NCBI GenBank assembly: GCA_030590175.1
Contig: JAUUZE010000005.1
Span: 1 to 36,975 of the forward strand
DNA: 36,975 bases
Direction: 5' to 3'
Source: Clostridia bacterium
Lineage (GTDB): Bacteria > Bacillota > Clostridia > DUPQ01
Shown here: positions 9,696 through 34,482 of the stretch, piece by piece
Numbering within the stretch: the first letter of the stretch is position 1
How the letters are laid out: each line of letters starts with the position of its first letter
The notes under the pieces: model-generated
Told to the model about the DNA's origin: nothing
The model's database searches: none
What the model saw: the letters and a program-made list of their open reading frames with translations, nothing else
Program-made: the position numbers and the translations under genes

Positions 9696-10136
9696 ATGTT
9701 TTTTGGAGAATACCTCCACCGAGTGGATGAAAAAGGAAGAACGATTATACCGCTTAAGTTCAGAGGTGAACTTGGCTCTTCATTTATGGTGGCAAAAAGC
9801 ACAGACAAATGTTTAATTCTTTATCCAATGGACGAATGGATGAAAGTTGTTAGAAATATTGAAGCTCAACCTTTTTCAGGAGAAGCAATGCGAAGAACAA
9901 TTAGACAGTTTTTAGCAGGAGCTTGTGAGTGTGAAGTAGATAAACAAGGTCGATTATTAATTCCTATAACATTGCGAGAGTACGCTGGCATTAAAACAGA
10001 AGTAAATATGAATGGTATGGGATCAAAAGCTGAAATATGGGATGCAGACACATGGGTTACTTACAGAGATCATAAAGCTAATGAACAAAAGGAAATTGAT
10101 GCTGCTACTAAAGCAAGAGAATTATTAGGCTTTTAA
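9696..10136 (+). CDS. mraZ: Transcriptional regulator MraZ
   Basis: 'MFFGEYLHRVDEKGRTIIPLKFRGEL' and second 'CECEVDKQGRLLIP' SpoVT/AbrB-like repeats; position at head of dcw cluster. Confidence 0.96.
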   Translation: MFFGEYLHRVDEKGRTIIPLKFRGELGSSFMVAKSTDKCLILYPMDEWMKVVRNIEAQPFSGEAMRRTIRQFLAGACECEVDKQGRLLIPITLREYAGIKTEVNMNGMGSKAEIWDADTWVTYRDHKANEQKEIDAATKARELLGF

Positions 10137-22670: not shown

Positions 22671-22746
22671 AATAACTCCTTGTTATAAAATGTAAATAAT
22701 TTGTGAACATTTAGTAAAAAGTATACTACAATTTTTTTATTAATGC

Positions 22747-22779: not shown

Positions 22780-23763
22780 GTGTTTATTGTGAAAAAAAAT
22801 ATATTATTAATCATAGTAGTTATAGTGATATCAACTTTCTTATCTGGATGTATGTTTTTACCTAAAGAAGATGAGAGACTTTCTCCACCAATTATTGAAT
22901 CAAAAGCAACAGAATATAAGACTGAAGCAGTATCATATGGAACTGTTTCAAAGGATGTTAGTGCATTTGGATCATTTAAACCTGTAAATGAAATCGCTTA
23001 TTCATTTAAGTATTTGGGAGGAACATTTCTACAGTTCTTTGTAAGTAAAAATGACGATATCGTTGTAGGACAAATTATAGCTGAATTAGATACTGGTGAT
23101 TTAGATAAGGACATAAGAGATAGCGAAATAGAATTAAAAAGGGCACAACTCACATTTGATAGATCTGTTGAATTATATAACAATAATCAAATTAGTGAAT
23201 ATGATTATCAAATTGCCCAATTAAATTATCAAAAAGTATTAAATTCACATAATGATTTAATATTAATTAAAGAGCAATCACAAATTGTTGCAGACGAAAA
23301 TGGCTCAATTTCTTACTTAGCACCCCTTGAAGAAGGAGATCAGGTAACAAAAGGAAATTTAGTTTTTAAAATTGTTTTAAATAACGAAATGAAATTAACT
23401 TGTATTGGTAGTGGTATTTATAAATTTGATTCTGATATGCCTGTAGTAATTGAATCACTAAACTTTCAAACAGAAGGAATTATAACAGTTTCTAGCCATA
23501 ATAGTATGGTGGTGGTTCCCAATGAATTTAACGAAGATTGGGGAATTGGAACATCTGTTATGGTTACACAAAATTTAGATACTGTTGAAAATGTGTTAAT
23601 GGTCAACCAAAAAGCTATTAAAACATTTGGTGGTAGAACTTATGCTAAGATATTAGAAGATGGTGTTCCAATAGAAAAAGAAGTGGTACTTGGACAGACT
23701 AATGGTAGATACTACGAAGTGATATCAGGATTAGTTGAAGGCGAATTAGCCATTATTTATTAG
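22780..23763 (+). CDS. Lipoprotein HlyD/MacA-like adaptor A
   Basis: Signal peptide with lipobox-like 'FLSGC'; barrel-sandwich/short coiled-coil pattern; C-terminal 'VLGQTNGRYYEVISGLVEGE' typical of RND/MacA adaptors. Confidence 0.82.
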   Translation: MFIVKKNILLIIVVIVISTFLSGCMFLPKEDERLSPPIIESKATEYKTEAVSYGTVSKDVSAFGSFKPVNEIAYSFKYLGGTFLQFFVSKNDDIVVGQIIAELDTGDLDKDIRDSEIELKRAQLTFDRSVELYNNNQISEYDYQIAQLNYQKVLNSHNDLILIKEQSQIVADENGSISYLAPLEEGDQVTKGNLVFKIVLNNEMKLTCIGSGIYKFDSDMPVVIESLNFQTEGIITVSSHNSMVVVPNEFNEDWGIGTSVMVTQNLDTVENVLMVNQKAIKTFGGRTYAKILEDGVPIEKEVVLGQTNGRYYEVISGLVEGELAIIY

Positions 23764-23772
23764 GAGAAATAC

Positions 23773-26676
23773 ATGCTTAGATTAGTACTTAGAAAAATAG
23801 TTAATAATAAATGGTTGGTATTATGTCTTTTGATTGGTAGTGTGTTAGCAGTAGCCGTAGTTAGTTCTATACCAATATACTCTAGTGGCATGCTACAACG
23901 TATGCTAGTAAAAGATTTTGAAACAACACAAGAGGAAACTAATATTCATCCAGCTACTTATGAATTTGTTAGCAGTTGGTCAAATCTTAATGTATTAGAA
24001 GACCGAATTAATTTATTTGAATATTATGATAGTAAAATTAAAGATGATATGTCAAAAAATATACCAATGAGTATTTTAACCGATTTTACATTATTGGAAA
24101 CTTCAAATTTTCTTTCAGTAGATATTAGAGGATGGGATCTATATTTAGAAGAAGTAGCTAAAGAAATGATGTTTCCAACTACAAGATTAAATCGTATTAA
24201 TATTTATGGTATGACAAATTTAGAAAATAATGTCAAAGTAATTTCTGGGCGAATGTATGAAAAAGAACCAATAGAAAGTATTAATTCTATAACTGGAAAA
24301 ACAGAGTTTATGTATGAAGTCATTGTTAGCTCAGAAGTCATGAAACGTAATAATTATGTTTTAAATGGAGAATATGCAATTATTGAAGCTAAAAATGATG
24401 TTGAGTATTTAGATAAGTTTAAAATTGTTGGTGTTGTTGAAATGCAAGAAGACAAATCATCATATTATACATTTGACAGTTATGGATTATATATGGATGC
24501 AGATGTCTTTTATAGCGATTTTATTAAAACAGAAGAGTATAGCCTTGATACTACTAATTGGTATTATGCATATAATTACTATGAATTATCATTAACAGAA
24601 ACCAAAGATATTTTAACTCAATATGATGAGAATGGCACATGGATTGTTAATAACCATGGATATATGAAACACAGAATGTCATTTGCTCCAATTTTACAAG
24701 ATTACATGGACCGTGCCAGTCGATTATCAGGTTTGCTTATTTTGTTAGTTATTCCCGTTATTTTAATGATTAGTTTTTATGTATCAATGATTGCACAATT
24801 GATTATGGAACAAGAAAAAAATGAAATTGCCATGTTAGAAAGTCGTGGTGCATCTAGAAAACAAATATTCAAGATTTATTTTTATGAGAGTTTATTAATT
24901 GGAGCTATTTCATTTGTTGCTGGCATTATATCGGCAATATTCCTGTGTAGATTATTAGGAGCATCAAATGGTTTTATGGAATTTGTAAACCGAGCTCAAA
25001 TGGACATTAATCTAAGTTGGGAAGCAATACTTTATGGCTTCATTTGTGCTTTATTCTTTATTATAATGATGGTATTTCCAGCTATTAAAGCATCAAAATT
25101 TACTATTGTTCAATATAAACAAGGCAAAGATATAATAAGCAAAAAACCATTTTGGCAAAAATTATATTTAGATATTATATTGCTTGCTGTGGCTTTGTGG
25201 GCACTAAATAATTACAATACATTTAAAGACAGTATTGGATTATCAGGAGATGGGCAGATTGACTATTTGATCTTCTTTGCAGTTACTTTCTTTATTTTAG
25301 GTTTAAGTTTAGTAATTATGAGAATATATCCATTACTTATTAACTTACTATTCAAATCAACTAAACGATTTATGTCACCACCTATGTATGCTGCATTTAC
25401 ATATGTAGGCCGTGGTGGTTCCATGAAACAATTTATTATGATTTTCTTGATTTTAGCTTTAGGTGTAGGAATTTTTAATGCTAATAGTGCTAGAACCATA
25501 AATGAAAACCTTGTAGATATTGTGAAGCATCAGTATGCTACTGATGTTTCTATTACCCTAAGCAATTGGATTGTAGATGAAAATGGTGAATTAGTACAAG
25601 AGGAAGGCTCTGAAGTAATAGCCAAAGATTTATTGAAATTTGAAAAAATTAAATCAAGTGAATTAATAGATACTGCTACAAAAGTTGCTAAGTATAAAAC
25701 ATTGATTAAAAAATATAGTACATATGGTGGCGCTACACTTAGCTCAACCTTGATAGGAATAACCCCAGAGGATTATGGCCGTGTAGTATGGACACGAGAC
25801 GATTTACTAACTGTTCATATTAACTTTTATTTAAATTTAATGGCATCCTATCCAGATGGTGTAATTATTTCTTCATTTACAGCGAATGAATTAGGAGTAA
25901 ATCCTGGAGATTTTCTTTCAATTGAAGTTCCTGACATAGATAATATTATTGAAGCACCTATATTAGCAATTGTAGATAACTGGCCTGGGTATAATCCTTA
26001 TACAGGGTACGATTTTGCAACAAATAGAACAGTAACAAATGATGATGTTTCATTTGGGTTTGTAGTTATGCATTATGATTTACTTTTATCAAATGCAGGT
26101 GATATTGATTACATGATTTGGATGAAAAAAAGTGATGGTGTGTTAGATAGTGAGATAAATAGCTTCTTATCAGAAAATGAAATTACTATTTCTTCTGGTG
26201 AATATGCAGACTTTGAAGTGTCTGAACAGAAAAAAGATCCAATGGTATTAGGAATGAATGGAATGCTTACATTAGATTTTATTGTCACAATGATTATTTG
26301 TGGTGCTGGATTTATAATTTTCTGGATTTTATCAATTAGGCAGAGGGTTTTACAATTTGGTATTTTTAGAGCTATGGGATTAAGCAAAAAAGAACTTATT
26401 CATATAATTTTCTGGGAGCAGTTACTAATTTCAGCAGTGGCAATAGTTCTTGGAATTGTAATTGGAGGAATATCGTCAGATGTCTTTGTTCCACTATTTG
26501 AATTAATCAGTGCACAAAGTGGACGTTTAATTGGATTTAAAGTGTTCTCGTTTAGAGAAGATTATTATAGAATTTATATAATTGTTGCAGCTATGTTAAT
26601 TATTGGTATTTCTACCATTGGACGATTCATTACTCATATTAAGATGGATCAAGCTGTTAAACTAGGAGAGGATTAA
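23773..26676 (+). CDS. FtsX/MacB-like ABC permease A (967 aa)
   Basis: N-terminal TM plus large extracytoplasmic region, two FtsX-like TM blocks ('MIAQLIMEQEKNEIAMLESRGASRKQIFKIY', 'ILSIRQRVLQFGIFRAMGLSKKELI'). Confidence 0.9.
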   Translation: MLRLVLRKIVNNKWLVLCLLIGSVLAVAVVSSIPIYSSGMLQRMLVKDFETTQEETNIHPATYEFVSSWSNLNVLEDRINLFEYYDSKIKDDMSKNIPMSILTDFTLLETSNFLSVDIRGWDLYLEEVAKEMMFPTTRLNRINIYGMTNLENNVKVISGRMYEKEPIESINSITGKTEFMYEVIVSSEVMKRNNYVLNGEYAIIEAKNDVEYLDKFKIVGVVEMQEDKSSYYTFDSYGLYMDADVFYSDFIKTEEYSLDTTNWYYAYNYYELSLTETKDILTQYDENGTWIVNNHGYMKHRMSFAPILQDYMDRASRLSGLLILLVIPVILMISFYVSMIAQLIMEQEKNEIAMLESRGASRKQIFKIYFYESLLIGAISFVAGIISAIFLCRLLGASNGFMEFVNRAQMDINLSWEAILYGFICALFFIIMMVFPAIKASKFTIVQYKQGKDIISKKPFWQKLYLDIILLAVALWALNNYNTFKDSIGLSGDGQIDYLIFFAVTFFILGLSLVIMRIYPLLINLLFKSTKRFMSPPMYAAFTYVGRGGSMKQFIMIFLILALGVGIFNANSARTINENLVDIVKHQYATDVSITLSNWIVDENGELVQEEGSEVIAKDLLKFEKIKSSELIDTATKVAKYKTLIKKYSTYGGATLSSTLIGITPEDYGRVVWTRDDLLTVHINFYLNLMASYPDGVIISSFTANELGVNPGDFLSIEVPDIDNIIEAPILAIVDNWPGYNPYTGYDFATNRTVTNDDVSFGFVVMHYDLLLSNAGDIDYMIWMKKSDGVLDSEINSFLSENEITISSGEYADFEVSEQKKDPMVLGMNGMLTLDFIVTMIICGAGFIIFWILSIRQRVLQFGIFRAMGLSKKELIHIIFWEQLLISAVAIVLGIVIGGISSDVFVPLFELISAQSGRLIGFKVFSFREDYYRIYIIVAAMLIIGISTIGRFITHIKMDQAVKLGED

Positions 26677-26689
26677 AAGGGGTAATAAA

Positions 26690-27370
26690 TTGAATTACAT
26701 TTATGAAACAAAAGGTATATGTAGAGAATTTATTCAAGGTAGACAAACAGTTCATGCCTTGAAAGATATTAATATTAAGATTGAAGAAGGCGCCTTTACA
26801 ATCCTTAAAGGGACTTCAGGATCTGGTAAAACAACCTTAATGAATATATTAGGTGGACTAGACCGACCAACTAGTGGGCAAGTGTTCTTTGATAAAAAAG
26901 AACTAACCGCCATAAGTGACTCAGAACGAGATATGATAAGAAGAAAAAATATCGGCTTTGTCTTTCAATCTGTTGCATTAATATCAGTTATGGATGCTTA
27001 TGAAAATGTGGAATTTGGTTTGCGAGTATCAGGAGCTCTAAGAAAAGACTGGAAACAATTAACTAGAAACAGTTTAATTAGAGTGGGACTTGAAAAGAGA
27101 ATGAATCATAAACCATTCCAACTATCAGGTGGAGAACAACAACGTGTTGCAATATCTAGAGCAATTGCTAATAAACCTAGAATTGTATTTGCTGATGAAC
27201 CAACAGCTGAACTAGATACACATTTAGGATTACAGATTGTAAAACTCTTTAAAACTTTGGTAACAGAATCAGGATTAACTATAGTCATGAGTACTCATGA
27301 CCCAAGTATGATTGAAATTGCTGATCATGTTATTTCATTAGAGGATGGTGAAGTTATTGATGAACGATAG
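26690..27370 (+). CDS. ABC transporter ATPase 1 (MacB/LolD-like; TTG start)
   Basis: Walker A 'GTSGSGKTT', signature 'LSGGEQQRVAISRAI', Walker B 'IVFADEPTAELD'. Confidence 0.96.
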   Translation: MNYIYETKGICREFIQGRQTVHALKDINIKIEEGAFTILKGTSGSGKTTLMNILGGLDRPTSGQVFFDKKELTAISDSERDMIRRKNIGFVFQSVALISVMDAYENVEFGLRVSGALRKDWKQLTRNSLIRVGLEKRMNHKPFQLSGGEQQRVAISRAIANKPRIVFADEPTAELDTHLGLQIVKLFKTLVTESGLTIVMSTHDPSMIEIADHVISLEDGEVIDER

Positions 27371-28322
27371 TAGTACAAATTTATATACTGGAGAAGATGA
27401 GAATTATTATGATCCTAAAAATGTCATAACTTGTGAGAATCTTGTAAAAATTTACAAAACAAAAGATACTGAAGTTGTAGCATTACAAGGACTTGATTTG
27501 GAAATAAAATATGGAGAAATGATGGCTATTATTGGGAACAGTGGTAGTGGGAAATCTACTCTATTAAATATGATCGGTGGTCTTGATAGACCGTCAGCTG
27601 GAAAATTGATTGTTAATGGACACAATCTCCTTAGAGTTAAAAAAACTGCGCTAACAGACTATAAACGAAATACAGTAGGGTTTGTGTGGCAAAATAATGC
27701 GCGGAATCTGATTCCTTATTTATCTGCTAAACAGAATGTGGAATTACCAATGATTTTAGCTAATCGAGCTGACTTTAAGAAGCGAAGTGCAGAATTGTTG
27801 AAAATAGTTGGATTAGAAGAGCGTATGAGAAATAAACTTAGTCAACTATCAGGTGGAGAACAACAACGTGTAGCTATTGCAATAGCCATGGCTAATGAAC
27901 CTAAGATAATATTAGCCGATGAACCAACTGGAGCTGTTGACTCTGATACAGGTAAACAAATATTTAATGCTTTTAGAAAATTAAATAGAGAAACAGGTGT
28001 AACAATTATAATCGTTACACATGATAGAGGAGTTGCTAAAAATGTAGATAGAGTAGTAGCAATTTCTGATGGTCGTACATCAAGTGAGTATATTCGTAAG
28101 ATAAGCTATAAAGAAGAACTAGAAGAACTTGATAGAATGTCAGGTGTTGAAGAAAGTGATACTCATGAAGAACTGGTTGTTGTTGATAGGCATGGACGTT
28201 TAAAATTACCAGAAGAATATCTAGGAGCGACTGGTATCAGTAAAAATAGCCGTATTAAAATGGATGTAGAAGACAATAAAATCGTCATATATAGACAGAA
28301 AGATGACAATGAAGAATCATAA
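27360..28322 (+). CDS. ABC transporter ATPase 2 with C-terminal SpoVT/AbrB-like domain
   Basis: Walker A 'GNSGSGKST', signature 'LSGGEQQRVAIAIAM', Walker B 'IILADEPTGAVD'; C-terminus 'ELVVVDRHGRLKLPEEYLGATGISKNSRIKMDVEDNKIVIYR' (about 28170-28300). ATG at 27360 chosen over 27345. Confidence 0.93.
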   Translation: MNDSSTNLYTGEDENYYDPKNVITCENLVKIYKTKDTEVVALQGLDLEIKYGEMMAIIGNSGSGKSTLLNMIGGLDRPSAGKLIVNGHNLLRVKKTALTDYKRNTVGFVWQNNARNLIPYLSAKQNVELPMILANRADFKKRSAELLKIVGLEERMRNKLSQLSGGEQQRVAIAIAMANEPKIILADEPTGAVDSDTGKQIFNAFRKLNRETGVTIIIVTHDRGVAKNVDRVVAISDGRTSSEYIRKISYKEELEELDRMSGVEESDTHEELVVVDRHGRLKLPEEYLGATGISKNSRIKMDVEDNKIVIYRQKDDNEES

Positions 28323-29376
28323 AAAATATTTATTATTAATAGTACTACTTATAGTTATGTCACTACTATTTTCAGGGTGTATGTATTTTATGCCTATTGA
28401 ACGTACAATATATGAACCTGAATTATTACCTTCAGAAAAACTGATTTTGCCAACTATAAATGTTATTGAAGGTGATTTACGAATTGTATATGATAAAGAA
28501 GCTATTATTGTTGCAGACATTGAAAATACTGAAATTGTAAGTTGTACTACTCTTGGAACAATTAGCGAATTGTATGTTAAAGTTGGAGAAGTTGTTAAGA
28601 AAAATCAATTAGTGGGAATTCTTGACATGAAATCTATTAATGAACAAGTATTTAAACAAGAAATTACTGTAGAAAAAGCTAAAATGAATTATGATAGGCA
28701 ATTAGGATTATATAATATCGGAAAGATTGATTTTTACACATTAGAGTTTGCACGTTTATCTTTAGAGGCATATGAGAATTATTTATCTGATTTATATGAA
28801 AAACAAGTTGCTCATTATCTATATGCCACATCTTCTGGAACTATTGTTGAAATTTTTAAATTTGAAGGAGATCCAGCTAAAGGTGATGTGCTAAGCATTT
28901 GTCCATTAAGTAATTTTTTAATTCAATATGAAATACCAGCAACTGATAATCTTGCCCCAACAGATGCATTACTAATGAGATTGCCTAGTGGAAAGTCAAA
29001 TGATGATGGGAAAGTTAAGATTATTTATGATGGTAATCAATATACTGGCTATATTTATAGAACTTCTTCACAGTATTCATTGGCATATGATTACTTTGGA
29101 AATGACGTCTATGGTCAAATAGCTTTTACAATTTTACCAGAACAATTAGTTTTAGGAAAAACAACAACCATTAGATATGTGGAAGATGAAGCTTTTAATG
29201 TAATGGTTATTCCTATTTCAACTGTTTATCCAAATGATGATGGTACATTTTATACCTATGTAGTAGTCAACAATGAAATTGAATTTAGGATTATTGAGAT
29301 TGGAATTACTGATGGAATTTTTTATGAAGTAAAAAGTGGTCTAGTGGCAGGCGACAAAGTTTTAAAGAGTAGGTAA
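28303..29376 (+). CDS. Lipoprotein HlyD/MacA-like adaptor B
   Basis: Lipobox 'LLFSGC'; 'CTTLGTISELYVKVGEVVKKNQLVGIL' lipoyl-like motif; C-terminal 'EIGITDGIFYEVKSGLVAGDKV'. Overlaps ATPase 2. Confidence 0.82.
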   Translation: MTMKNHKKYLLLIVLLIVMSLLFSGCMYFMPIERTIYEPELLPSEKLILPTINVIEGDLRIVYDKEAIIVADIENTEIVSCTTLGTISELYVKVGEVVKKNQLVGILDMKSINEQVFKQEITVEKAKMNYDRQLGLYNIGKIDFYTLEFARLSLEAYENYLSDLYEKQVAHYLYATSSGTIVEIFKFEGDPAKGDVLSICPLSNFLIQYEIPATDNLAPTDALLMRLPSGKSNDDGKVKIIYDGNQYTGYIYRTSSQYSLAYDYFGNDVYGQIAFTILPEQLVLGKTTTIRYVEDEAFNVMVIPISTVYPNDDGTFYTYVVVNNEIEFRIIEIGITDGIFYEVKSGLVAGDKVLKSR

Positions 29377-29381
29377 CATTA

Positions 29382-30374
29382 ATGAATAATATAAAGAGTA
29401 AAAAAGGAATATTGTGGATTATAGGTTTATCACTTATTTTTTCACTTATTGGATGTCAGAAGGTGATTGTTAATCCTCTTACTATTCCTGAGTATATAAA
29501 AAAAGAGCCAAATTATTTAACTGAAATAATTGTTAAGGTTGATTTATACGATTCTAAAACTATATATGCAAAAGTTCATCCAATTCGCGAGGAAACCTAT
29601 TCGTTTGATTCAACTGGCTATATTGAAAGAATTATTCCAGTAAGGGGAGATGAAGTTGTAAAAGGACAATTACTAGCTATTTTAAACAATGCTGATTTAT
29701 TAAAAGAAGCAAGAGATATGGAAATCACCTATCAGGTAGAAAAATTAAAAATTGAAAAACTTCAAAAAATATATGATTCAACTGGTAGTGGAAAATATGA
29801 CTTAGATATAGCTATTCTTGATTTTAAAATTACTCAATATCAATATGACCAGTTACAAGTTCGAGTAGATGATTTGAATATTTATGCAACATTTGATGGT
29901 GTTGTTTCTGCAATTAAAGCTACTGTAAATAAATATGTTACTTCATCTAATGGGATTATTTCAGTAATTGATGAAAGTGATACATATATTTCATTTACAG
30001 ATCCTGATATACCAGGGTTAATAATTGGATCAATTGTTAACTTATATATAACTAAAGATGAAATAGTTGAAGCAACTGTTATTGATATTGACAAAAAAGA
30101 AGAAATTATTATTATTGATACTGGTATTGAAGATATACGGCTAGAAGATATTGGACAATTGTTTAAAGTTGAAATAATTTTAGATCAGGTGAATCAGGCA
30201 ATAGCAATAAAAGAAGGTTGGTTACATGAGGCTGCTGGTAGAGAGTTTGTCTATGTACTTGACAATGGAGTTATGACTGAACGGGAAATATCAAAGGGGA
30301 AACAACTTGGGGGATGGATTGAAATTTTACTTGGTCTTCAAGAAGGGGATGAGGTAATTGTTAATACTAATTAA
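29382..30374 (+). CDS. Lipoprotein HlyD/MacA-like adaptor C
   Basis: Signal peptide with 'SLIGC' lipobox-like site; 'GYIERIIPVRGDEVVKGQLLAIL'; 'GKQLGGWIEILLGLQEGDEVIV'. Confidence 0.8.
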   Translation: MNNIKSKKGILWIIGLSLIFSLIGCQKVIVNPLTIPEYIKKEPNYLTEIIVKVDLYDSKTIYAKVHPIREETYSFDSTGYIERIIPVRGDEVVKGQLLAILNNADLLKEARDMEITYQVEKLKIEKLQKIYDSTGSGKYDLDIAILDFKITQYQYDQLQVRVDDLNIYATFDGVVSAIKATVNKYVTSSNGIISVIDESDTYISFTDPDIPGLIIGSIVNLYITKDEIVEATVIDIDKKEEIIIIDTGIEDIRLEDIGQLFKVEIILDQVNQAIAIKEGWLHEAAGREFVYVLDNGVMTEREISKGKQLGGWIEILLGLQEGDEVIVNTN

Positions 30375-30391
30375 TAATTACAAAACTTTTA

Positions 30392-33300
30392 ATGCTAAAA
30401 ATTGTAGTACGTAAAATCATATATAATCGATGGATTAGCATTAGTTTATTAATCTGTTGTACTTTAGCAATTGCTGTAGCAGGCGCAATTCCCATGTATT
30501 CATATTCTGTTATAAATAATAGTATATCAAATGAATTCGAAGATATGATTACCAATGGTGACGAAATTGGTATGACATATCAATTTGAAGCAAATTTTGA
30601 ATATGTTGATGAAAATCAACTATCTATTTATCAATTATATGATGAGAAGATTAATAGTACTCTAAGTAAAAAAATACATGCAGATATAATTGTTAATTAT
30701 AGTGAAGTTTCTTCAGTTAAATACAAAACAAAAAATATAAACAATCCTAATAATATTACAATTATTAGTAAAGATGTATATCAAATACCTGCAGGGTATA
30801 CTGACTTATATGTAACTGCAATTGAAAATTTTACTGAAATGGTTGGTATTTCAAAAGGACGTATGTACCAAGCAAATGATGAATATTTAGAAGTAGTTGC
30901 TACTGATGCTTTTATGAGGCAAAATAAATTTGAATTAGGTGAAATCTATGAAAATTACTTACTAGACGATGAAATCATAAAGGGAGGAACCTTTATGATT
31001 GTTGGTATTGTTTATGACAAAGATACTACAAATGGTTATTTAAACTTAACTAATCAACAAGTATATGCTGATATTAATATATTGAAATCCCAATTTACAG
31101 GTAGTGAAAGTTTTAAAATTGGTTTAGTTTCTTGGTTCTACATATATGATTTTTATACTTTTCAGTTATATAATGTGACTAAAACTGCAAAAGGATTAGC
31201 AGATAATGAACAATGGATAACTGATAATTATGGTTACCTTAGCCATCAAAGTAATTTTAATCATATAATCGCAAAATTTGAAGATAATGTGAAAAACACA
31301 TCACTAATAGTTGTTATGCTTATTATCCCAATTATATTTATGATTGCATTATATATTTCTATGATAACTAATTTATTAATTAATAATGAAAAAAATGAAA
31401 TTGCTACAATGAAAAGTAGAGGAGCTACTAAAAAACATATTATAAAAATATATTTTTATAATAGTTTACTTATCTCGATAGTGTCGTACTTTTTAGGGAT
31501 TTTGCTTGCAATATTTATCTGCAAACTGTTAGGTGCATCAAATGGATTTTTAGAATTTATTACTCGTGATGATATAGTAGTTAAAGTTAATTGGAAAGTT
31601 TTCTTATATGCTTTTATTGCATTAGTATTTTTTAATATATCAATGTTAATTCCAGTTTTTCGCTATTCAAAATATGACATAATTCAACTTAAAGCAGATG
31701 AATTACTATTTAATCACAAACCATTTTGGGAAAAAATGTATATTGATGTTATTTTATTAGCCATTTCTATTTATTCAATTATTAATTATCAAAACTTTAG
31801 GTCACTTATTACACTAACATCTGAACAGGCTTCCTATTATCCAATTTTTATAGCTGCGTCCTTTTTTATGCTTGGTAGTTGTATGCTTTTTACTAGAATT
31901 TATCCATTTATGATGAAGCTATTTAGCTCTATTGGAAAGAGAAGTAAACAAGTAACTCTATATAGCTCTTTATTATTTGCTGCACGTGGAGATAAAATAA
32001 GACAAACTGTTATGATATTTTTAATGTTTGCTGTTTGTATTGGAATTTTTAATGCTAATAGTGCCAGATCAATAAATGCAAATTTAGTAGATGAAATTAA
32101 ACATCAAAATCAAAGTGATATTATTATAAAACCAATTGACTATATTGTTAGACCTACAGAACGACGTATTTCACATACTCTAGCTGTATTAATTTATCAA
32201 GAGACAAGAATTAGACCACCATTCAATGGAGAATATTATTATTTAAAAGTATATGAAAAGGTAATGACTTTAGGTATTATACAAAATCAACGACGATTAT
32301 ATGAAGGGCTAAAAGAATATGAAAACTTTATTATGGTTACATCGATATTACAATCTCAAGGTATAACAAATTTACCAGTTGAAAGAGAAATTCCCAGATA
32401 TTTTTATAGTAGTAGTCGAGATACTGATACAAAGTTTGTTGAAAATCCTGATAATATTAATTTACAGATTTTAGGAATTAATCCTGAGGAATACTCAAAA
32501 GCTGTCTGGTATAGAGAAAACATTAATGAACATCCATTAAACTATTATTTAAGTTTATTAATAACATATCGTAATGGAATGATAATTTCTAGAAATTTAG
32601 CAGAAGAAAAGAACTTGGCTGTTGGAGATACATATCGTATTTATTTAAAAGATACAGAACGACCAATTGACTTATTCATATTAGAAATTGTAGATTACTG
32701 GCCTGGATACACTTCACAATCTAACTACAATAAGCCTTTAGATGAATATGTAAAAGATGAAGATAATATTATGGGACTTTGTGTGATGGATTATAATTTC
32801 TTAGTTTCATACACTGGTGAAAATGATTTAAAATTTATTGCTAAGAAAAAAGAGGGTGTTAAGGATAGCGAAGTAATCAGGTATATGATTGATAACAATT
32901 TAGGTGTACTTGGTTCTCATTTTACTGACTATGAAATTGAAAGCATGAAAAAAGAAGTATCAATTTACACCATGAATAGTACATTAACATTAAACTTTTT
33001 AATAAGCCTAATTATTTGTGCAATTGGTTTTGTGATTTTCTGGTCTGTATCTATTAAAAAAAGAGAATTACAATTTGGTATTTTGCGCTCAATGGGAATT
33101 ACAAAAAAAGAATTAATGTTAATTATTTTTGGAGAACAAGCTTGGGTATTTTTAATTGCTATTGTAGCTGCAATTCCCATAGGAAGTATTGCTAGTAATA
33201 TATTTATTCCAATATATTCATTTATTAATGAAAAAAATATGATGATGCTTGATTTTATTATGAAAAAAGACCCATTCGATTACATTAGTATTTATGGCAT

Positions 33301-33394
33301 GTTAGTTATAATGATTGTTGCTGGAATATTTATTATTAAAAGTATTATTAACAAACTTAAGATGGATCAAGCTATTAAGTTAGGAGAAGACTAA
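30392..33394 (+). CDS. FtsX/MacB-like ABC permease B (1000 aa)
   Basis: Paralog of permease A: shared 'GIFNANSAR', 'IVDYWPGY', 'ELQFGILRSMGITKKELM', identical-type C-terminus 'KMDQAIKLGED'. Confidence 0.9.
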   Translation: MLKIVVRKIIYNRWISISLLICCTLAIAVAGAIPMYSYSVINNSISNEFEDMITNGDEIGMTYQFEANFEYVDENQLSIYQLYDEKINSTLSKKIHADIIVNYSEVSSVKYKTKNINNPNNITIISKDVYQIPAGYTDLYVTAIENFTEMVGISKGRMYQANDEYLEVVATDAFMRQNKFELGEIYENYLLDDEIIKGGTFMIVGIVYDKDTTNGYLNLTNQQVYADINILKSQFTGSESFKIGLVSWFYIYDFYTFQLYNVTKTAKGLADNEQWITDNYGYLSHQSNFNHIIAKFEDNVKNTSLIVVMLIIPIIFMIALYISMITNLLINNEKNEIATMKSRGATKKHIIKIYFYNSLLISIVSYFLGILLAIFICKLLGASNGFLEFITRDDIVVKVNWKVFLYAFIALVFFNISMLIPVFRYSKYDIIQLKADELLFNHKPFWEKMYIDVILLAISIYSIINYQNFRSLITLTSEQASYYPIFIAASFFMLGSCMLFTRIYPFMMKLFSSIGKRSKQVTLYSSLLFAARGDKIRQTVMIFLMFAVCIGIFNANSARSINANLVDEIKHQNQSDIIIKPIDYIVRPTERRISHTLAVLIYQETRIRPPFNGEYYYLKVYEKVMTLGIIQNQRRLYEGLKEYENFIMVTSILQSQGITNLPVEREIPRYFYSSSRDTDTKFVENPDNINLQILGINPEEYSKAVWYRENINEHPLNYYLSLLITYRNGMIISRNLAEEKNLAVGDTYRIYLKDTERPIDLFILEIVDYWPGYTSQSNYNKPLDEYVKDEDNIMGLCVMDYNFLVSYTGENDLKFIAKKKEGVKDSEVIRYMIDNNLGVLGSHFTDYEIESMKKEVSIYTMNSTLTLNFLISLIICAIGFVIFWSVSIKKRELQFGILRSMGITKKELMLIIFGEQAWVFLIAIVAAIPIGSIASNIFIPIYSFINEKNMMMLDFIMKKDPFDYISIYGMLVIMIVAGIFIIKSIINKLKMDQAIKLGED

Positions 33395-34482
33395 TGAGAA
33401 AGAAACAATTATTTAAGTTAATTGCTTTATTAGTAATGATGATATTACTACTTTCTTCTTGTGACTTATATTTACCTAAAAAGGAGATAATATATAAAAC
33501 TAATCTTATTACTGGAGATGAGTATGAACTTCAAACAGTTTCACCTTTTATTGGGAATCTGGTTGTTGAGCGTCGTAAATATGGTACATTTATTCCTGAT
33601 GAAGAAGAAACATTTACAATTAACTGTAAAATAAACTCAGTTATTAGTGAAATATTTATAAGAGTGAATGATCATGTAGAAAAAGGACAATTAATTGCCA
33701 AAGCTAACAGTGAGAAAATTGCTGAACAAGTATTTTACCAAGAAATATACACAGAAAAAGCTGTACTTAGTTATGAAAAAGCTAAAGATCAATTTGGAAA
33801 TAAACTTATTGATCAATATCAACTAGAATTACTTAGATTGATTGTTGTTAGTGCTAAGAACCAACTTGACGACTACCGTGAACTATATAATGATAGTTTT
33901 ATATATGCTAGTGATGAGGGCGAAATAATAGAAATATTTAAATCAGTCAGTGATTACAGTATTGGGAAAATAGCTTTAGTTTGTAATAAAGACAATGGAA
34001 TTTTGCGAGTTTCTACTGATAAAGAAGTAGATGAAGCTTTAATTAATTTTGGGGTTGCTACACAAAAAGTTATATCTAGTATTGATTATATATATATGCG
34101 TTTAAAAAATAAAGATGAAATAAAAATAAAAGTCATTGATCAAGTATATGATGGTATTATTTTTAGAGACATAAATACCTTTATTCTTCAATATGGGAAT
34201 GAATTTGAAATGAATTATATAGATATCCTTTTCAAAGATGCACCTGATGATATATACTTTCAACAGAATATGACAGCAATATATATTGAAACCCAACTAA
34301 ATGATATATTGCTACTTGAAACAATAGCTATATATTCTGATGTTGATGATAAAAAATATGTATATTTTGTTGAAAATAATAGAACAATTATCAAAGAAGT
34401 AATAACAGGATTAAGTTCAAATGGATATACACAAATTATTAGTGGACTAGTTGAAGGGGATAAGGTTTTTATAGTTAAATGA
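33394..34482 (+). CDS. Lipoprotein HlyD/MacA-like adaptor D
   Basis: Lipobox 'LLLSSC'; similar to adaptor B ('SVISEIFIRVNDHVEKGQLIAKANSEKIAEQVFYQEIYTEKAVLSYEKA'); C-terminal 'VITGLSSNGYTQIISGLVEGDKVFIVK'. Confidence 0.8.
   Translation: MRKKQLFKLIALLVMMILLLSSCDLYLPKKEIIYKTNLITGDEYELQTVSPFIGNLVVERRKYGTFIPDEEETFTINCKINSVISEIFIRVNDHVEKGQLIAKANSEKIAEQVFYQEIYTEKAVLSYEKAKDQFGNKLIDQYQLELLRLIVVSAKNQLDDYRELYNDSFIYASDEGEIIEIFKSVSDYSIGKIALVCNKDNGILRVSTDKEVDEALINFGVATQKVISSIDYIYMRLKNKDEIKIKVIDQVYDGIIFRDINTFILQYGNEFEMNYIDILFKDAPDDIYFQQNMTAIYIETQLNDILLLETIAIYSDVDDKKYVYFVENNRTIIKEVITGLSSNGYTQIISGLVEGDKVFIVK

What the first reader, a model, noticed from the sequence alone, without database searches (positions are those of the whole stretch)
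27360..28322. ABC ATPase fused to a C-terminal SpoVT/AbrB-like domain
After a complete MacB/LolD-type ATPase (Walker A, LSGGEQQ, Walker B all present) and a charged linker, the protein ends in 'ELVVVDRHGRLKLPEEYLGATGISKNSRIKMDVEDNKIVIYR'. This matches the AbrB/MazE/SpoVT swapped-hairpin pattern (vDrhGRikLPee...lGi...sri.m.ve.nkIvI). AbrB-type domains normally bind DNA as dimers. Two hypotheses: the ATPase feeds transporter state back to transcription of its own operon, or the swapped hairpin serves as a dimerisation/regulatory module on the NBD, analogous to C-terminal regulatory domains of other NBDs. The partner ATPase (26690-27370) lacks the extension, so the heterodimer would be asymmetric.
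Basis: partly seen in the sequence, partly recalled or inferred. Interest (0 to 1): 0.75.

Follow-up and report, generated by a model that had tools for sequence, protein, structure and literature searches.

The report
ABC ATPase with AbrB-fold tail
One of the two motor proteins of a widespread bacterial membrane transporter carries a small domain borrowed from a family of DNA-binding regulators, but the residues that touch DNA are mostly gone, so the domain most likely links or regulates the motors instead of switching genes.

Summary
The protein at 27360-28322 is a complete MacB/LolD-type ATPase followed by a genuine AbrB-superfamily half-barrel (residues ~269-313). A profile of the family's tails finds B. 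subtilis AbrB as the best PDB sequence (E=5e-6), and the predicted fold matches AbrB, SpoVT and MazE. It is not a local oddity. All 11 genomes of the order have it, and it recurs in Bacillota, Chloroflexota (~61 of 201 sampled) and Actinomycetota. It arose once on the ATPase tree (SH-aLRT 99), is under purifying selection, and usually sits next to a tail-less ATPase; no tail-less partner carries it. Of AbrB's DNA-contact residues only R15 remains (46/46). R8 and K9 are never basic, R23 is lost in 38/46 and R24 in 41/46, whereas stand-alone relatives in the same order mostly keep them. DNA feedback is therefore unlikely. The best reading is a DNA-independent dimerisation/regulatory module: the tails of two tailed ATPases intertwine and couple two transporters. 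Some Ktedonobacteria carry two tandem halves in one chain, which could complete a barrel alone. Oligomeric state and function are inferred, not shown. I found no description in the open-access papers searched.

The parts
27360..28322 (+). NBD2: MacB/LolD-type ABC ATPase with C-terminal AbrB-fold tail (320 aa; alternative in-frame ATG at 27345)
   Evidence: Pfam ABC_tran 4.4e-32, LolD/MacB-type models best in NCBIfam
27423..28094 (+). ATPase core of NBD2 (residues 22-245)
   Evidence: AF2 pLDDT mostly above 90
28095..28163 (+). charged linker, residues 246-268, low confidence in the AF2 model, variable in length and sequence outside the order
28164..28298 (+). AbrB-superfamily half-barrel (residues 269-313): first hairpin, helix 285-291, strand 299-304, strand 307-312; invariant D276 and R280
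26690..27370 (+). NBD1: tail-less partner ATPase
   Evidence: tail-less ATPase adjacent in 117 of 138 loci
23773..26676 (+). permease 1, 967 aa with two FtsX domains
30392..33394 (+). permease 2, 1000 aa with two FtsX domains, paralogue of permease 1 (35-39% identity)
22780..23763 (+). HlyD/MacA-like lipoprotein adaptor a (weak Biotin_lipoyl match)
28303..29376 (+). HlyD/MacA-like lipoprotein adaptor b (weak Biotin_lipoyl match)
29382..30374 (+). HlyD/MacA-like lipoprotein adaptor c (HlyD_D23 1.2e-4)
33394..34482 (+). HlyD/MacA-like lipoprotein adaptor d (Biotin_lipoyl_2 5e-4)
22691..22709 (+). conserved direct repeat TGTAAA-N5-TGTGAA upstream of the operon, candidate response-regulator site

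Best explanation
The tail is a co-opted AbrB half-barrel that works as a DNA-independent oligomerisation/regulatory module on one of the two ATPases of a type VII (MacB/LolCDE-like) transporter. Shown: the domain is of the AbrB superfamily; it sits on NBD2 only; NBD2 is usually encoded beside tail-less NBD1; the tail arose once and is under purifying selection; the DNA-contact residues are mostly lost while R15 (R280 here) is kept. Inferred from established structures of the superfamily: an AbrB half folds stably by intertwining with a second half. Inferred: each permease has two FtsX halves and binds one NBD1 and one NBD2, so a full transporter has one half-barrel. Two NBD2 tails would therefore join two transporters through their cytoplasmic faces, and restrain or synchronise ATP-driven closing of the motors. 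In this window one NBD pair lies between two permease genes, so the joined pair could be permease 1 with permease 2. In Ktedonobacteria tandem halves could form the barrel within one chain.
For: AbrB membership. Basic residues at R8/K9 in 0/46, at R23 in 8/46 and R24 in 5/46, with R15 in 46/46, against 24 stand-alone relatives from genomes of the same order with R23 basic in 24/24. Mean net charge of the domain -1.8 against +1.1. In AbrB itself R15A kept DNA binding (five-fold weaker) but changed the oligomeric state (PMC4022651), so keeping R15 alone fits a structural role. One change on the ATPase tree, SH-aLRT 99. Omega 0.05-0.09 for the tail in the two closest pairs. Tail-less ATPase adjacent in 117 of 138 loci; none of the other ATPases in the loci is tailed. 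Tandem halves in L110, L237, L238 and L240.
Against: No complex was modelled or measured; AF2 here is single-chain only. The tandem versions show that a barrel need not join two ATPases, which favours a barrel with its own function. The window's own domain has net charge 0 and keeps eight basic residues, so weak DNA or RNA binding is not excluded. In many Lachnospiraceae the tail loses the fold's conserved Pro and sometimes Gly, so the requirement may be loose.
Confidence: 0.52

Rival explanations
1. Docking module: the half-barrel pairs with, or its completed barrel binds, another cytoplasmic protein (a stand-alone AbrB/SpoVT protein, or a client) and so recruits or gates the transporter.
For: Stand-alone AbrB-superfamily proteins occur in nearly all of the order's genomes. 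The tandem halves make a barrel possible inside one chain. A family-specific acidic motif (H/Q)(E/D)E precedes strand 1, with E271 in 44/46. A PDB model of AbrB with AtpE exists (9a4b).
Against: No partner gene beyond the transporter's own parts recurs next to the ATPases in all the groups of loci seen; partners elsewhere in the genome were not searched.
Confidence: 0.25
2. Transcriptional feedback: the tail dimer binds DNA, for example the operon promoter, and reports transporter state.
For: The fold is that of DNA-binding AbrB; R15 is kept; some relatives (8/46) have Arg at the R23 position. The promoter has a conserved element.
Against: R8/K9 are non-basic in 46/46 and R24 is acidic in 31/46. 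The domain is tethered to what should be a membrane complex. The conserved element is an 11-bp-phased direct repeat typical of OmpR-family regulators, and similar sites lie before genes unrelated to the transporter.
Confidence: 0.1
3. Intramolecular cap: a single half-barrel packs on its own NBD or on NBD1 without dimerising and tunes ATP hydrolysis.
For: Comparable C-terminal regulatory domains exist on MalK, ModC and MetN (from established knowledge). The linker is short (about 20-40 residues).
Against: The linker has low AF2 confidence and no fixed packing could be read from the model. A lone half leaves strand pairings unmet.
Confidence: 0.1
4. The tail is a non-functional remnant.
For: None beyond the loosened motif in Lachnospiraceae.
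Against: Omega about 0.05-0.09 in the two closest pairs, and retention across several phyla with one origin and no loss in the sample.
Confidence: 0.02

Closest known systems
AbrB/MazE/SpoVT (MraZ) swapped-hairpin superfamily, B. subtilis AbrB N-domain (PDB 1yfb, 1z0r, 2k1n)
   Same: Sequence profile, fold, VDxxGRxxxP core, R15
   Different: C-terminal on an ATPase instead of free; positions R8, K9, R23, R24 mostly not basic; more acidic
MacB / LolCDE / FtsE type VII ABC transporters
   Same: ATPase core (LolD and MacB models best), FtsX permease and MacA-like adaptors in the operon
   Different: Heteromeric NBD pair, one with an AbrB tail; permease with two FtsX domains in one chain; one NBD pair apparently serves two permeases
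C-terminal regulatory domains of MalK, ModC, MetN and similar NBDs
   Same: Small domain after the NBD, expected to modulate NBD closure (analogy only, from general knowledge)
   Different: Different fold; present on only one of two NBDs; not compared here by computation

Membership tests
AbrB/MazE/SpoVT superfamily (tail) | Sequence similarity to characterised members | tested here: met
   AbrB E=5e-6 and MazE 5e-4 in PDB; TIGR01439 17/30, PF04014 18/30
AbrB/MazE/SpoVT superfamily (tail) | beta-beta-alpha-beta-beta half-barrel fold | tested here: met
   AF2 plus Foldseek: top hits AbrB, Abh, SpoVT, MazE at probability about 1.0; E-values weak for 54 aa
AbrB/MazE/SpoVT superfamily (tail) | Intertwined dimer | not testable with these tools
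   Only single chains can be folded here
AbrB-type DNA-binding regulators | Conserved DNA-contact arginines R8, R15, R23, R24 | tested here: not met
   Only R15 kept; R8 0/46, R23 8/46, R24 5/46 basic against 16/24, 24/24 and 18/24 in stand-alone proteins (residues from PMC4022651)
MacB/LolD-type (type VII) ABC transporter | LolD/MacB-class NBD with intact Walker A, signature, Walker B, H-loop | tested here: met
MacB/LolD-type (type VII) ABC transporter | FtsX-domain permease and extracytoplasmic adaptor | tested here: met
   Two permeases with two FtsX domains each; adaptors only weakly matched by Pfam
LolD equivalog / MacB equivalog | Score over the curated equivalog cut-off | tested here: not met
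   LolD 224 bits against 307.75; MacB 210 against 966

The most novel reading that the evidence does not exclude
A regulatory fold was captured once by an ABC transporter motor, lost its DNA contacts, and now bridges two transporters (here permease 1 and permease 2) into a coupled pair through a swapped-hairpin clasp on the shared asymmetric ATPases.
Probability: 0.25. Interest if true: 0.75.

Novelty: new variant of a known kind. Interest (0 to 1): 0.52.

Why it matters
It would be a case of a transcription-factor fold recruited as a mechanical or regulatory part of a membrane transporter, in a large and apparently uncharacterised transporter family of gut, soil and environmental bacteria. 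It offers a concrete, easily tested reason for having two different ATPases, and it warns that automatic annotation of such proteins as AbrB-type DNA binders would probably be wrong.

Tried and rejected
Pfam and NCBIfam on the window protein alone gave only borderline tail matches, so relatives were needed. Chance or frameshift extension was rejected by conservation and purifying selection. A tail on the partner ATPase was looked for and not found. DNA feedback was tested through the contact residues and the promoter and judged unlikely. Literature searches for an AbrB domain on an ABC ATPase gave no relevant paper; the library lacks most subscription journals, and family databases may already list the architecture. 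A first Chloroflexota search failed on a handle rule, and one alignment on a frame slip; both were redone.

Full report
Observation. The frame at 27360-28322 encodes 320 residues: an ABC ATPase core (Pfam ABC_tran 4.4e-32; best curated models LolD and MacB, both below their equivalog cut-offs), a charged linker, and a C-terminal segment of about 45 residues. Among the best 60 solved-structure hits the matched stretch ends by residue 249, so none covers the tail.

Is the tail an AbrB domain? On the window protein alone the match is weak (MazE_antitoxin E=0.043; isolated tail 0.003). Relatives give the power. Thirty diverse tails aligned (A3) share an invariant Asp, Arg and Pro with a nearly invariant Gly. 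A profile of them finds B. subtilis AbrB first in PDB sequences (5e-6), then MazE (5e-4) and Abh; a few unrelated chains such as SRP proteins appear at 0.01 and above. Eighteen of 30 match PF04014 and 17 match TIGR01439. A 54-residue AF2 model finds AbrB, Abh, SpoVT and MazE as its top nine Foldseek hits with probability 0.97-1.00; E-values are only 0.008-0.24, as expected for so short a domain. In the full-length model the order of elements is a first strand pair, helix 285-291, strand 299-304, strand 307-312.

How widespread? All 11 genomes of the order have it. In an even sample of the phylum, 12 of 399 genomes besides this one had strong matches (E below 1e-13) spanning ATPase end and tail; most weaker hits in that table cover only the ATPase end. 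A scan of the 84,980-species collection gave Clostridia and Chloroflexota. About 61 of 201 Chloroflexota genomes have strong matches. Plasmid records add Streptomyces, Kitasatospora, Nonomuraea and Paenibacillus. The two records I opened annotate it simply as an ATP-binding cassette domain protein.

Partner and permease. Of 138 distinct tailed ATPases, 117 have a tail-less ATPase directly adjacent; about half of the exceptions lie on short fetched fragments. None of the other ATPases of the loci carries the tail. Both kinds keep catalytic motifs in nearly all cases. Most loci with enough flank carry the long permease with two FtsX domains. In the window two such permeases and four adaptor-like lipoproteins surround one ATPase pair; in Ruminiclostridium-type genomes and Caldicoprobacter an adaptor-permease cassette lies elsewhere, mostly without any ATPase beside it. 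In Clostridia the gene order is NBD1 then NBD2; in Chloroflexota the reverse.

Origin and constraint. On a tree of 124 dereplicated ATPase cores, built without the tail, tailed proteins form one side of one branch (48 rows, SH-aLRT 99; quick search). In the two closest pairs omega of the tail is 0.046 and 0.093; other pairs are saturated at synonymous sites.

DNA binding? AbrB's proposed DNA contacts are R8, R15, R23 and R24 (PMC4022651). Mapped on 46 dereplicated tails, position R8 is basic in 0, K9 in 0, R15 in 46, R23 in 8, R24 in 5. In 24 stand-alone superfamily members from genomes of the same order the numbers are 16, 23, 17, 24 and 18. Mean net charge is -1.8 against +1.1; the window's own tail is at 0. 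In AbrB R15A still bound DNA, five times weaker, and altered oligomerisation. The retained residue is thus one with a structural role.

Tandem tails. In Dictyobacter (L110) and other Ktedonobacteria (L237, L238, L240) the tailed ATPase ends in two successive halves; the first copy has lost the R15 equivalent, the second keeps it; L235 and L239 show an eroded first copy. This suggests that a complete barrel, however assembled, is the functional unit.

Mechanism. I favour a DNA-independent oligomerisation/regulatory module (0.52). What is shown is the domain, its exclusive position on NBD2, its constraint and the loss of DNA contacts. That two tails pair, that this joins two transporters, and that it affects ATP hydrolysis are inferences from the known pairing of the fold and from one half-barrel per presumed transporter.

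Promoter. A 19-bp element TGTAAATAATTTGTGAACA upstream of the operon (22691-22709) is identical or nearly so in the three same-genus relatives, also where the neighbouring gene differs. It is a direct repeat with 11-bp phasing, as for WalR/PhoP-type regulators (from general knowledge); similar sites stand before genes that look like galU, a VTC-type gene and lipoprotein genes in these genomes (identities read from sequence, not tested). It gives no support to AbrB-type autoregulation.

Noticed in passing
L057, L058, L060-L068, L075, L076, L079: In Ruminiclostridium/Oscillospiraceae genomes the NBD1 + NBD2-AbrB pair is followed by a ~1000 aa secreted protein with a sugar-type solute-binding domain, MalF- and MalG-like permeases and an NHL-repeat protein: a conserved operon mixing exporter-type motors with importer parts.
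   Followed up: partly
L248, L249, L250, L253 (L251 has a distant NBD ORF nearby): Adaptor + double-FtsX permease two-gene cassettes without an ATPase next to them, in genomes whose NBD1/NBD2-AbrB pair lies elsewhere; the motors probably act in trans.
   Followed up: partly
L110 5359-6591; L237, L238, L240: Tandem AbrB halves on the tailed ATPase of Ktedonobacteria, first copy without the GR arginine.
   Followed up: partly
window 22691-22709: Conserved TGTAAA-N5-TGTGAA direct repeat upstream of the operon, with a small set of similar sites elsewhere in the related genomes.
   Followed up: partly
L074, L077, L081, L082, L084-L086, L093-L098 among others: Many Lachnospiraceae tails lose the conserved Pro (P284) and some the Gly (DKAHRVQLS...), yet keep Asp276 and Arg280.
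   Followed up: no
window 9696-10136: A true AbrB-fold regulator, MraZ (6e-31), starts what by gene order looks like a division/cell-wall cluster in the same window; both of its halves keep the R23 arginine.
   Followed up: partly
L195 (Paenibacillus cellulosilyticus plasmid): The tailed ATPase is followed by an extracellular solute-binding protein; a second ATPase, an adaptor and the double-FtsX permease precede it. A second hint that this exporter-like system goes with solute-binding proteins.
   Followed up: no
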